Below are positions 2,745-8,712 of a stretch of 64,000 bases of DNA, piece by piece. Position numbers and translations under genes: made by a program. The stretch is taken from NCBI RefSeq assembly GCF_021018895.1, contig NC_079375.1, positions 23,477,475 through 23,541,474 on the forward strand, in the 5' to 3' direction. This DNA is from Seriola aureovittata. Taxonomy: Eukaryota; Chordata; Actinopteri; Carangiformes; Carangidae. The notes under the pieces are model-generated. The model was not told the DNA's origin, did not search any database, and saw only the letters and a list, made by a program, of their open reading frames with translations. Position 1 is the stretch's first letter. The number at the start of each line of letters is the position of its first letter.

Positions 2745-4022
2745 CAGTAGCCTGTAAACAGGCTCCTCTCTCTGTTTTCTCTTTCTAACAGCCCATTGTA
2801 AACATCCTAATTAATTTCAATAGCCCTAAAGTAGCTGCAAGGCTGCGGTTCATCAGGCCTCTTCAGGTTCCATAAAGACTAGTTTGAATCCTGGCAACTA
2901 AAGGGGACACTGCACATGTTTCCTCATGTTACAACAAGAAAAGGAAAATAACTCAGTGAAACCTACAGACGGTGAAACTGAAGGACAGAAATAAGCTACT
3001 GCATTTCATGAAGTCTGAAAGTTTTCAACTACAAATTCACACACACATTTTCACTGGTAAGTTCCTTCTATGTGCTTGTCCATGCGACCACTGATGTGTA
3101 TCTACTACAGTAATGTCATCAGGCGCAGGGGATACATCTACAACTAGCACACAGGAAGTAAACAAATCCAGGAACAGCTACTTGGCTACGTGTAGCATGT
3201 GTATTATTTGTTTCTATCATGTACTTGCTAGTTCTTGTCTTTGCAATGTGGCAGCTTCATTTGTTATCGGTGTAGTTAATAATTGTAAAGGTTTGCAGTG
3301 GAGCACATAGACAGGTATGATTCGTCTGTTATAGAGTGACATCACTGGAAATATTCTTTAGTTGCACTAAAATCAATGTTCAGTGATAGAACATAGGAAC
3401 ACATGGCTGCCACATCAATTAATTTAATTATGTTCAATGATTAAATCTAAGAAAACACGGTCATCAGTCCCCACTGCGGTGTCCTTTGGAGAGTTTGGAT
3501 GGATATAGAAGTGTAGTCGACGACGATGGCGAGATTTGGTTGAATGTGTTGAACAGTGTATTAAGCTCAGTGCATGTAAATGTTGAGGTGTTATGGAAAT
3601 GAAAATGTAAATCAGAAGAAACCGTGGAGTTCAGATGGACTATTATGATATGAGACCTATGAATCTGTCACACAACATACAAAAGGCATTTTGCAAGTAT
3701 AGAAGCAGAGGTCGAGCTAAGCTGTAAAAACAGAGGAGATTTAGTTTTTTACTTCTATGAACAATATTTCTGTATTTATCAGTTTTTTTCCCCCTTTTTA
3801 TCCCAGGCTGAGAGAACGTCTTTGCGACCGCATGACGCTGCTGCTATAGTGTTTTCTGTTGGGTTGTTTTAACATTCATTTTTGTACTGACTGGAGCAGC
3901 TTGTAGAGCAGCTTTAAATGGACTCGTTAAATTTAAATTCATTTAAAATAAATGATCAAGACTTTGTGCCTGATTCCTTCCTTCATTAAATGAATGAAAG
4001 GAACTAACCAATGGCTAATGTT

Positions 4023-5926
4023 AGCAAATGTTAGCTAATGGTAGCCAACGTTTGCTAGATGTTGCTGTTTAACTGACATTACTAGCTTAGCTCAGTTATT
4101 TTAATTTTTTGAAATACAAAGAGTTCAAGATATTAATGTCGACAGTTTCACAGACATCTGTTTTATAAAGTCAGTCTAGGGGGAAATACTCGGACACACC
4201 ATATCTGACTGTCGTATCCGTGAGTCCGTTTTGGCCAGCTCTCAGTTAGGTCAATGATTAATTAAAACAACTGACTCTGGCAAATGTTCAGCAACAGTTA
4301 AATTCAATTATATCCACAAGAAGGTTATTTATTTATTTATTTCATTTTAAATATTAGGTCATCATAAAAAAAAAAAATCTCCCTTTCATTCTGCTTTGAA
4401 GAAAACAGTTTGATAATAATATTCATAATGAAAAGTAGTCAGCTGTATATATCTTCAGGTAGTGTTAACAGGGCACAGCAGAGGGTGTGGTGTGTCCTGG
4501 GTGGATGTAGAATGGGCTGTGTGGGTGGTTACTGCAGAGAGAAGGTGGGAGTGTGTGAGGTGTGAGGGTGTAGATGGTAGGGGGACTCACTCTGGCCTTG
4601 GCCGCAGGGGCACAGGGGTCTGATGTCTTGTTCGGGGTGGAGGAGACCTGGGAAGACAACCACCCCCTGGTCAATAGAACCTCCAACAAACCACATGCCA
4701 CAACACAGCGGGGTGGAAGAGCAGGTGGAGCGGTGGGAATGAGGTGCCGACCAGGTGGAGCGAGGGCGGGGGGAAGGGCTGGACCGATCAGACGGGTGTA
4801 TGGGCTACTACAGCTAATCATAAGGGAAGCATAGTATATGACTGCATGGAAAATAACTGCGTGGATCAAAAAGAAGCAAAGTGAACCAAGCTTTAGCCCA
4901 ATGTGTGGGTGTATGAATAATTTTAAATAATCGACAGCAGTCGCACTAATTACATTTAATAGTTAACAATGTGTCAGTCAAATGGGGGAGGAGGAAGTGG
5001 ATTAAACATACGTGTACACATGTCAGATACACTGCATGAGATGGATAATAACAGCCATTTAATTGGCAGTAAAATGGAGATGTAAGACAATTTCATCCTG
5101 ACAATCAAATGTCAGCACAAAAAGAGTGTCAGCATAAATACACAACCAGGAAAAAACACATCAAATGTCACATTACTGTTGTTCAGACACACAACCACCA
5201 GTCCAATCCCTAAAACACTGAGGATGGAAAGGTTGTTAGATCAATAAGCTGCTGTTGAATGGAAAATATTAAAATACATAACAGACAAGTCAATAATAGT
5301 ATCACTGGCGTCTGAATGAGTCAGTGCCTCTTGCGATGATGCACGGTGGCGATGTGTTTGTGTTCGTTTAGTGGCTTCACTCTGATAGACTGATGGAAAG
5401 AGGACAAGCACGTCTCTGAAACGCGAAGTGAGGCGGCGCAGCAGGACCAGACCTGCAGCACATGAACCTGAGAGGCTGAATAGTGACCAAACATTTTGTT
5501 TTTGTCAGTGTGACGCCGACAACCAGACACTCTGCAACACTTCCCCCCCGGTGACTCTTCTTTTGGAGAGAAAGCGGCAGCTCCTTCTCCACACTGATCT
5601 AACTTTAATTGGCCATGTAATCATGTCTAAGTGACACAGGTTGAGGAAGCGAGGAGTCGCTGTGAATATGAAAAAGAGTATTGGAAAAAAGGAGCGAGCA
5701 TGCCGTTTCATTGGATAAATAAGGGGGAGATGATGTCTCCCAGCCAGTGACTGCGGTATGTTAGCCTGTGCTACCAGTGTGACCAGGTAGAAGGGCTTTA
5801 AGGGAAAGTAAAGAAGATGAAAGTGCACTTTGAGATCTGCACCTCCAACGAACCTTTACATCAACACAGAAAAGCAGAGATTGAAATGGAGCAGTTCCAG
5901 ACTAACAGACAGAAATATCTAATGCT
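4023..5926. repeat. 1.9 kb tandem duplication, copy A
   Basis: The left copy of a direct tandem duplication, unit about 1904 bp. By eye it differs from copy B by three substitutions (near 4189, 4452 and 5468) and a 3-base difference in a poly-A run (12 versus 9 A). It contains the downstream copy of the 57-nt map4 linker exon. The junctions share a short CTAATG-x-TA word inside a TTAGC-rich stretch, so slippage or microhomology-mediated duplication is plausible. Outside the 57 nt exon I see no coding sequence in it. Confidence 0.95.
4591..4647 (-). CDS. map4: map4 inter-repeat linker exon, downstream copy (duplicated)
   Basis: This is the second copy of the 57-nt linker exon, identical in sequence and splice sites (acceptor ggttgtcttcccag, donor GCCAGA|gtgagt), phase 0 at both ends, encoding VSSTPNKTSDPCAPAAKAR. 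The intron between the copies is 1844 nt, so nothing steric forbids using both. Zero, one or two copies keep the frame and give 0, 19 or 38 residues between repeats 1 and 2. It has one Cys and ends in KAR just before VQIVHKK. Whether both copies exist in the animal depends on the tandem duplication being real. Confidence 0.75.
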
Positions 5927-6491: not shown

Positions 6492-7827
6492 TCTGGCCTT
6501 GGCCGCAGGGGCACAGGGGTCTGATGTCTTGTTCGGGGTGGAGGAGACCTGGGAAGACAACCACCCCCTGGTCAATAGAACCTCCAACAAACCACATGCC
6601 ACAACACAGCGGGGTGGAAGAGCAGGTGGAGCGGTGGGAATGAGGTGCCGACCAGGTGGAGCGAGGGCGGGGGGAAGGGCTGGACCGATCAGACGGGTGT
6701 ATGGGCTACTACAGCTAATCATAAGGGAAGCATAGTATATGACTGCATGGAAAATAACTGCGTGGATCAAAAAGAAGCAAAGTGAACCAAGCTTTAGCCC
6801 AATGTGTGGGTGTATGAATAATTTTAAATAATCGACAGCAGTCGCACTAATTACATTTAATAGTTAACAATGTGTCAGTCAAATGGGGGAGGAGGAAGTG
6901 GATTAAACATACGTGTACACATGTCAGATACACTGCATGAGATGGATAATAACAGCCATTTAATTGGCAGTAAAATGGAGATGTAAGACAATTTCATCCT
7001 GACAATCAAATGTCAGCACAAAAAGAGTGTCAGCATAAATACACAACCAGGAAAAAACACATCAAATGTCACATTACTGTTGTTCAGACACACAACCACC
7101 AGTCCAATCCCTAAAACACTGAGGATGGAAAGGTTGTTAGATCAATAAGCTGCTGTTGAATGGAAAATATTAAAATACATAACAGACAAGTCAATAATAG
7201 TATCACTGGCGTCTGAATGAGTCAGTGCCTCTTGCGATGATGCACGGTGGCGATGTGTTTGTGTTCGTTTAGTGGCTTCACTCTGATAGACTGATGGAAA
7301 GAGGACAAGCACGTCTCTGAAACGCGAAGTGAGGCGGCGCAGCAGGACCAGACCTGCAGCACATGAACATGAGAGGCTGAATAGTGACCAAACATTTTGT
7401 TTTTGTCAGTGTGACGCCGACAACCAGACACTCTGCAACACTTCCCCCCCGGTGACTCTTCTTTTGGAGAGAAAGCGGCAGCTCCTTCTCCACACTGATC
7501 TAACTTTAATTGGCCATGTAATCATGTCTAAGTGACACAGGTTGAGGAAGCGAGGAGTCGCTGTGAATATGAAAAAGAGTATTGGAAAAAAGGAGCGAGC
7601 ATGCCGTTTCATTGGATAAATAAGGGGGAGATGATGTCTCCCAGCCAGTGACTGCGGTATGTTAGCCTGTGCTACCAGTGTGACCAGGTAGAAGGGCTTT
7701 AAGGGAAAGTAAAGAAGATGAAAGTGCACTTTGAGATCTGCACCTCCAACGAACCTTTACATCAACACAGAAAAGCAGAGATTGAAATGGAGCAGTTCCA
7801 GACTAACAGACAGAAATATCTAATGCT
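5927..7827. repeat. 1.9 kb tandem duplication, copy B
   Basis: The right copy, 1901 bp, directly abutting copy A and ending where the sequence departs from copy A at aatgctaaag (about 7828). It contains the upstream copy of the linker exon (6492-6548). The near-identity means either a very recent event, gene conversion, or a false duplication made when two haplotypes were assembled in tandem. Confidence 0.95.
6492..6548 (-). CDS. map4: map4 inter-repeat linker exon, upstream copy (duplicated)
   Basis: This 57-nt exon, phase 0 at both ends, encodes VSSTPNKTSDPCAPAAKAR. The acceptor is ggttgtcttcccag and the donor GCCAGA|gtgagt, close to consensus. It sits inside the second copy (plus-strand order) of a 1.9 kb tandem duplication and is first in transcript order. 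It falls between repeat 1 (ending GGGK) and repeat 2 (starting VQIVHKK), where mammalian MAP4, from memory, has an insert of roughly forty residues that tau lacks. Including it adds 19 residues. Its sequence is identical to the downstream copy at 4591-4647. Confidence 0.72.
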
Positions 7828-8712
7828 AAAGAAAACAAATTAAATTTGAAGATCTGAAGAGGCAACCGTGAAAACATGCAAACACATGGAAAGATAAAGG
7901 AAGGAATTAATTAAAAGGAATTAAAGAAAAAGATGAAAATAGTGGCTGGAAGAATAAATTAAGTGCCAGTTTCATGTCTGACTGCTATGTAGCAAATAGA
8001 AGCCAAATATTAAGCTACTTCTTCAAATGACCTCAACCTTGATCTGCTATGAAGTTACACATTTATGCATTGGTAATGATAATGCAGTAAACTCAGAGAG
8101 GACGACAGACAACACAGCAGAGATGGAAAGAGGACGAACCGGACAGACACATTAAATCACACGGCACAGCTGCAGGAGGAGAGGCGACGTTTGTGATTCA
8201 AAGCGTCAGCGCAAAAGACAGACGGCCACAAACACTGACGGCACAACTAGGCGTCTGAGCAATGAACACACTTTCATCACAACGGAAAAGGATAGCTGAC
8301 ATGCACAGAAACTGTTTTTCATTGTGGCTGCACCTTTTAGGATGGTGGGGGGGGTGCGGGGAAACAAATGGCAGCATTAGGCGTGGTCAACAATGATAAC
8401 GCTGGATGTTGAACCGAATCAACAGACAAATGACAGATAAAAAGTGGACGGAATAAGGAAACCTAATGCATAAATAGAGACACGTATAGCTGCCCTCTCT
8501 TCGGTTAGGTGAGGTTGTATAAGAAATCACTGTCCGCGGTGCTGAGCTCAGTCATATATGAGTTTTTATGGTGTGGGCATTTCATTTGTCAAATAAAGAG
8601 CAGAGGATGTGTGTTAACCGCTTGAATGTTGGCATGCTGGTATTATATTCCCTCTCCTACTCATCACTCATTACAAATGCTAATTTGAGCATTGTTGTTT
8701 ATAGAGTATTAA

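What the first reader, a model, noticed from the sequence alone, without database searches (positions are those of the whole stretch)
4018..7828. Near-perfect 1.9 kb tandem duplication doubles an in-frame exon between microtubule-binding repeats 1 and 2
Seen: two abutting copies (about 1904 and 1901 bp) differ by only three substitutions and a 3-base poly-A change. Each carries the same 57-nt exon (VSSTPNKTSDPCAPAAKAR) with identical good splice sites and phase 0 at both ends. Known: in MAP4, unlike tau, the spacing between repeats 1 and 2 carries an insert (roughly forty residues in mammals, from memory). Inference: the animal could make proteins with 0, 19 or 38 linker residues, changing the spacing of tubulin-binding repeats. 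The near-identity means the event is very young, homogenised, or an assembly artefact from two haplotypes.
Basis: partly seen in the sequence, partly recalled or inferred. Interest (0 to 1): 0.8.

Follow-up and report, generated by a model that had tools for sequence, protein, structure and literature searches.

The report
Young doubled spacer exon in MAP4
In the genome of a kingfish, a 1.9-kb piece of the gene for the microtubule-binding protein MAP4 is present twice in a row, doubling a small conserved spacer exon; it looks like a very recent, possibly not yet fixed, copy change, and no protein is yet shown to use both copies.

Summary
Window 4015-5918 and 5919-7819 are head-to-tail copies (1904/1901 bp) differing by 3 substitutions and a 3-base poly-A change. 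Each carries the same 57-nt phase-0 exon with identical splice sites, in the MAP4 gene between the repeat-1 and repeat-2 exons.

New here: (1) a third copy on chromosome C1, an 11.2-kb stretch colinear with window 2479-15530 but with ONE unit, flanked by satellite DNA inside a 20-kb gap-bounded contig. (2) The exon is a conserved teleost MAP4 spacer: 111 of 130 retrieved hits carry it once and none twice, including an annotated product of this very gene. (3) The join lies at an 8-of-9-base microhomology (0.13% of random breakpoint pairs).

Best reading: a real, very young microhomology-mediated tandem duplication, no more diverged than alleles and so possibly polymorphic; one unit is ancestral. 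A 38-residue spacer is possible but unsupported. An assembly artefact is not excluded: no reads were available. New member of a known kind (tandem exon duplication).

The parts
4015..5918 (.). tandem copy A of the 1.9-kb unit (1904 bp)
5919..7819 (.). tandem copy B of the 1.9-kb unit (1901 bp)
4591..4647 (-). 57-nt spacer exon, copy A, phase 0 both ends, VSSTPNKTSDPCAPAAKAR
6492..6548 (-). 57-nt spacer exon, copy B, identical to copy A with identical splice sites
4015..4023 (.). left breakpoint motif CTAATGTTA, at the edge of a degenerate GCTAATGTTAGC-type minisatellite
5919..5927 (.). join between the copies, CTAATGCTA (carries the C of the right end)
7820..7828 (.). right breakpoint motif CTAATGCTA; 8 of 9 bases shared with the left breakpoint
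10694..10951 (-). MAP4 exon with tubulin-binding repeat 1 (PF00418)
1074..1166 (-). MAP4 exon with tubulin-binding repeat 2 (VQIVHKKLDFSHVTSRCGSKDNIKHVPGGGN)
2479..15530 (.). stretch also present, with one unit instead of two, on C1:34405284-34416445 (11.16 kb, about 99.5% identical)
23893..25548 (-). first coding exon of the annotated isoform P0061 (MSFLSGS...)

Best explanation
A real and very recent tandem duplication of a 1.9-kb intron-exon-intron segment in the MAP4 gene (chromosome C12) of a yellowtail kingfish matching Seriola aureovittata. It probably arose by a microhomology-guided template switch or end joining (join at CTAATG[T/C]TA), not by recombination between long repeats. It doubles the conserved teleost MAP4 spacer exon between tubulin-binding repeats 1 and 2. 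Shown: the anatomy, identical splice sites, phase 0, one spacer in 111 of 130 retrieved hits and two in none, and an 11-kb single-unit copy between satellite sequences on chromosome C1. Inferred: the single unit is ancestral; the two units are no more diverged than alleles and may be a segregating copy-number variant; the C1 copy is a separate young segmental duplication. How it would work: the two exons lie 1844 nt apart with equal splice signals, so nothing visible forces a choice, and mRNAs from this allele could carry the spacer once or twice. Twice would lengthen the repeat 1-repeat 2 spacer from 19 to 38 residues, adding charge +2, one cysteine and one Thr-Pro site. My odds: duplication real on at least one haplotype 0.78; C1 copy a true segmental duplication 0.6; double inclusion in a fair share of mRNA 0.4.
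For: Exact anatomy. No N in the window or 20 kb either side, so no gap between the copies. Microhomology 8 of 9 at the join; 0.13% of 20,000 random breakpoint pairs from the window do as well with one mismatch allowed. The assembly paper that fits this genome reports 165x PacBio long reads from a 20-kb library and contig N50 28.5 Mb, so many reads could span 3.8 kb (PMC8807568; an inference, not a read check). C1 shows both outer edges of the unit joined to the same flanks with one unit. A/B divergence 3/1901 (0.16%; 95% CI 0.03-0.46%) is like the C12/C1 flank divergence 19/9192 (0.21%; Fisher p=1.0) and lies below the 0.649% heterozygosity reported for S. dumerili (PMC5751066, passage seen). 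Spacer: 111 of 130 hits carry one, 19 none, 0 two.
Against: No reads, depth or RNA-seq were available. The annotated product of this locus that was retrieved (P0061, isoform X2) has one spacer. Counting only exact bases at the breakpoints, the homology is 2 bp, which 16.6% of random pairs reach. Apart from the join base 5925, copy B has no state of its own at the 8 variable places inside the unit: it equals A at four and C1 at four; this is unremarkable if B kept the ancestral state but could also come from polishing with mixed reads. The fitting assembly used wtdbg2 on noisy reads, with no haplotig-purging step in the methods text read. With three copies and no outgroup DNA, the order of events cannot be rooted.
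Confidence: 0.62

Rival explanations
1. Assembly artefact: a 'false exon gain'. Copies A and B are the two alleles of one single-copy segment, laid end to end by the assembler.
For: A/B divergence is within the allelic range. False exon gain from haplotypes is a documented error class (PMC9516828, passages seen). The fitting assembly was wtdbg2 with no purge step in the methods text read. The retrieved annotated protein uses one exon. B has no private states apart from the join base.
Against: No gap between the copies, whereas that paper names gaps between copies among the marks of false duplication. The join falls at an imperfect 9-base microhomology (0.13% of random pairs).
Confidence: 0.2
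2. The C1 copy is not a separate locus but the other allele of this locus (an unpurged haplotig misplaced by scaffolding). The fish would then be heterozygous: two units on one chromosome 12, one on the other.
For: 20-kb contig bounded by 500-N gaps near a chromosome end; divergence like allelic variation; difference density rises towards its right end, 8 of 19 flank substitutions in the last 1.5 kb, as in thinly covered sequence.
Against: Within the contig both ends of the MAP4 stretch run without a gap into other DNA: a 169-bp piece of a satellite with many copies at the C1 end on the left, and 1.1 kb then a 36-bp satellite array (208.6 copies) on the right. A plain haplotig should continue into MAP4 DNA. 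Three one-base indels in its coding exons do not suit a working allele, unless they are read errors.
Confidence: 0.33
3. The copies are old and kept alike by gene conversion, perhaps under selection.
Against: The introns are as alike as the exon, C1 has one unit, and none of 130 hits shows a second spacer. Divergence equals that of the flanks from C1, with no sign of extra homogenisation.
Confidence: 0.04
4. The duplication is real but silent: one copy is always skipped or chosen at random, so the protein does not change.
For: P0061 has one spacer; [quoted passage not shown]
Against: Identical splice sites and a 1844-nt intron give no visible reason for exclusivity; P0061 may rest on RNA from single-unit fish (inference).
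Confidence: 0.4

Closest known systems
Tandem duplication of tau (MAPT) repeat exon 12 in teleosts, e.g. seven repeats in Antarctic rockcod (PMC4815063, section 7 read)
   Same: Same gene family, same region, phase-0 exon duplicated in tandem in bony fish.
   Different: There a whole tubulin-binding repeat is multiplied, with RNA support reported for the rockcod model; here the spacer between repeats is doubled, the copies are almost identical, and no RNA support is known.
Tandem exon duplications in general (PMC9013439, passages seen; PMC9741552, passages seen and abstract start)
   Same: Exon plus flanking introns copied head to tail, frame kept.
   Different: The human tandem-exon substitution events are described as mostly ancient, with regulated choice; this one is at the divergence of alleles.
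False exon gain in assemblies (PMC9516828, passages seen)
   Same: Near-identical extra exon inside one gene, divergence of allelic size.
   Different: No gap at the join, and a microhomology junction.
Interchromosomal segmental duplication into satellite-rich regions (general knowledge, recalled)
   Same: C1 copy: more than 10 kb, more than 99% identical, flanked by satellites.
   Different: Known here only from one gap-bounded contig, so a chimera is not excluded.

Membership tests
MAP4 gene (MAP2/tau family) | PF00418 tubulin-binding repeats | tested here: met
   Repeat 1 exon hits PF00418 at 1.3e-12, 47.8 bits against a cut-off of 27
MAP4 gene (MAP2/tau family) | Nearest relatives are MAP4, with a spacer between repeats 1 and 2 that tau-type hits lack | tested here: met
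   Spacer-bearing hits are 86-100% identical over the region and mostly named MAP4 or map4l (some are named tau or otherwise by NCBI, P0061 itself 'tau-like'). Of 130 hits, 111 have the spacer and 19 do not; of the 19, 12 are named tau or tau-like, one MAP4-like (P0066, on a contig of the same length as the tau-like hit P0080), six are uncharacterised or hypothetical.
Tandem exon duplication | Abutting head-to-tail copies each with the whole exon and splice sites | tested here: met
Tandem exon duplication | Both copies used in transcripts | not testable with these tools
   No RNA reads; the one annotated product of the C12 locus retrieved has one copy
Mutually exclusive exons | One and only one copy per transcript | not testable with these tools
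   P0061 is compatible with it but does not show it
False heterotype duplication (false exon gain) | Assembly gap between the copies | tested here: not met
   No N in window or flanks
False heterotype duplication (false exon gain) | Haploid-level read depth | not testable with these tools
   No reads
Segmental duplication (C1 copy) | At least 1 kb and at least 90% identity at another locus | tested here: met
   11.16 kb, about 99.5%
Segmental duplication (C1 copy) | Anchored in non-homologous flanks at a true separate locus | tested here: inconclusive
   Non-homologous, satellite-bearing flanks on both sides inside one contig, but that contig lies between 500-N gaps

The most novel reading that the evidence does not exclude
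A segregating exon-copy polymorphism in a vertebrate MAP4 gene makes proteins with a 19- or 38-residue spacer between tubulin-binding repeats 1 and 2, a natural test of how repeat spacing tunes microtubule binding, while a single-unit version sits as a young duplicate in satellite DNA of another chromosome.
Probability: 0.3. Interest if true: 0.55.

Novelty: new member of a known kind. Interest (0 to 1): 0.36.

Why it matters
If the doubled exon is spliced in twice, it is a natural experiment on the spacing between the first two tubulin-binding repeats, in a spacer that 111 of 130 retrieved relatives keep at 19-22 residues. If it segregates, fish with one and two units can be compared within one farmed species. 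If it is an artefact, it warns that the reference annotation of this gene, and of the '-like' gene on chromosome C1, should not be used for copy-number claims.

Tried and rejected
Rfam scan of the window: 0 matches at gathering score. Pfam on five further frames (MAP4 N-terminal, three other exon-bearing ORFs, a 600-codon stretch): no family at E<=0.001. PDB searches (48 and 54 sequences) gave tau, one MAP2 and one 'Microtubule-associated protein' entry, none named MAP4, so no MAP4 spacer structure to compare. Recombination between long flanking repeats as the cause was rejected: only 8 of 9 bases are shared at the breakpoints. The unit as a mobile element was judged unlikely: beyond the three full copies, the 11 other genome matches are 50-64 bp pieces, ten of them the GCTAATG minisatellite motif at its left edge (that search gives lower bounds and skips very common words). 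Searches for a published report: MAP4 + teleost + exon duplication + microtubule gave 0 papers; Seriola + copy number variation + tandem duplication gave 2, judged irrelevant from the listing; MAP4 + inter-repeat + microtubule gave 11, of which passages of one were seen (PMC10232483). Whole-genome questions left unanswered because the machine did not answer: what the C1 flanks match elsewhere, whether DNA beside the 11-kb stretch is also duplicated, and all PF00418 loci.
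Full report
What is there. Two abutting copies, 4015-5918 and 5919-7819, end at a 9-base remnant 7820-7828. They differ by three substitutions and three A's; a fourth mismatch (4021/5925) marks the join. The exon copies (4591-4647, 6492-6548, minus strand) and their splice sites are identical, and the A/B differences lie more than 130 nt from them. It is the only self-match in the window at the settings used.

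Which gene and which animal. Repeat 1 (10694-10951) and repeat 2 (1074-1166) flank the pair. The window lies on a 27,675,246-bp contig C12 of a 647.09-Mb genome held in 31 contigs. A protein named 'microtubule-associated protein tau-like isoform X2 [Seriola aureovittata]' (P0061) comes from a contig of exactly that length, and another, 'microtubule-associated protein 4-like' (P0022, 105 aa), from one of 34,595,819 bp, the length of C1. P0061 maps exon by exon onto the window and 1.5 kb beyond it (1053 of its 1054 residues placed by exact matching); the script put the spacer on copy B, but the copies cannot be told apart. The assembly paper that fits calls the fish S. lalandi; its longest chromosome (34.59 Mb) agrees, its total (648.34 Mb) is slightly larger than what is held here, so that it describes this very assembly is an inference (PMC8807568: first of four parts of the text seen, passages).

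The third copy. A genome search with the unit gave three full-length matches and 11 short ones. The third lies in C1:34405284-34416445, colinear with window 2479-15530 but with one unit. Outside the unit, 19 substitutions in 9192 bp separate C1 from C12, after setting aside six apparent substitutions in a poorly aligned stretch at 15479-15488; 8 of the 19 lie beyond 14000. There are 18 indels (one of them inside the unit), 9 in simple runs by a crude rule; three one-base indels fall in coding exons and no flank substitution does (672 coding bp). Inside the unit, C1 shares the B state at all four A/B differences and has three substitutions and one indel of its own; apart from the join base, B has none of its own. 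The stretch lies in a 19,992-bp contig between 500-N gaps; the unit is 187 kb from the end of C1. Its left neighbour is a 169-bp piece of a satellite repeated many times on C1; its right neighbour is 1.1 kb, then a 36-bp satellite array of 208.6 copies. I read this as a young duplicate in satellite DNA, with a haplotig or chimera as a serious rival.

The exon in other fish. A search with the repeat 1-spacer-repeat 2 region gave 3225 proteins, of which 120 were listed; a second search aimed at a doubled spacer gave 67, most of them the same. Of the 130 distinct hits held from both (P0049-P0178), 111 have a spacer of 19-22 residues between repeat 1 and the next repeat (12 of 19, 98 of 20, 1 of 22), 16 have none, one has six unrelated residues and two did not parse. 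An independent scan for the spacer sequence gave 111 with one, 19 with none and 0 with two. The lists show cluster representatives at 90% identity only, so another isoform of this gene with two spacers could be hidden in a cluster. In S. dumerili one listed form (P0175) skips repeat 2 but keeps the spacer. So the spacer exon is a conserved part of teleost MAP4, and a single copy is the rule among those seen.

How it arose. The breakpoints share CTAATG[T/C]TA. Among 20,000 random breakpoint pairs in the window, 0.13% share as much with one mismatch allowed, but 16.6% share at least as many exact bases (2), so the support rests on the imperfect motif. The left edge is a short minisatellite-like motif found elsewhere in the genome. 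This fits template switching or end joining; it does not fit unequal crossing-over between long repeats, and an arbitrary join of two haplotypes would not be expected to show it.

How old. A/B divergence is 0.16% (95% CI 0.03-0.46%), C1/C12 flank divergence 0.21% (Fisher p=1.0). A congener carries 0.649% heterozygosity (PMC5751066, passage). So A and B are no further apart than two alleles of one fish might be. This suggests a copy-number variant rather than a fixed feature; it is also what a false duplication from two haplotypes would show.

What it may do. Equal splice signals and a 1844-nt intron allow double inclusion. A doubled spacer would add 19 residues of net charge +2, one cysteine and one Thr-Pro. 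The only retrieved annotated product of the C12 locus has one spacer. Function is therefore open; I put double inclusion at 0.4.

Novelty. Duplicated repeat exons in teleost tau are in print (PMC4815063, section 7 read), and tandem exon duplication is a general process (PMC9013439, passages). I found no report for the MAP4 spacer in the searches. It is a new member of a known kind, interesting mainly as a possible natural polymorphism.

Noticed in passing
L009-L011 (C1:34405284-34416445): An 11.2-kb MAP4 fragment on C1 appears in public data as a separate 105-aa 'MAP4-like' protein (P0022): repeat 1, one spacer, then read-through into intron. It is probably a non-functional duplicate or a false gene.
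   Followed up: partly
C1:34378800-34595819 (L009-L031): The end of C1 is satellite-rich and gap-ridden (eight N stretches), including a 36-bp array, a satellite matched by the 169-bp piece, and a repetitive array reaching the last base.
   Followed up: partly
window 4014-4063 and short matches L004-L008: GCTAATGTTAGC-type minisatellite motif dispersed in the genome; ten of 11 short genome matches fall on it. It may be a fragile edge.
   Followed up: no
P0175 (Seriola dumerili): A listed MAP4 form skips repeat 2 yet keeps the spacer, so the spacer exon may be spliced independently of the repeat 2 exon.
   Followed up: no
P0127 (Thunnus thynnus): Spacer begins VGQ before VSST, a three-residue extension that looks like a shifted splice site.
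   Followed up: no
window 23893-25548 and 39488-40795: Two long MAP4 exons without Pfam match; P0061 starts in the first, while P0064 and P0175 of related fish start MDLSL and use the other, so there seem to be at least two alternative N-terminal halves.
   Followed up: partly
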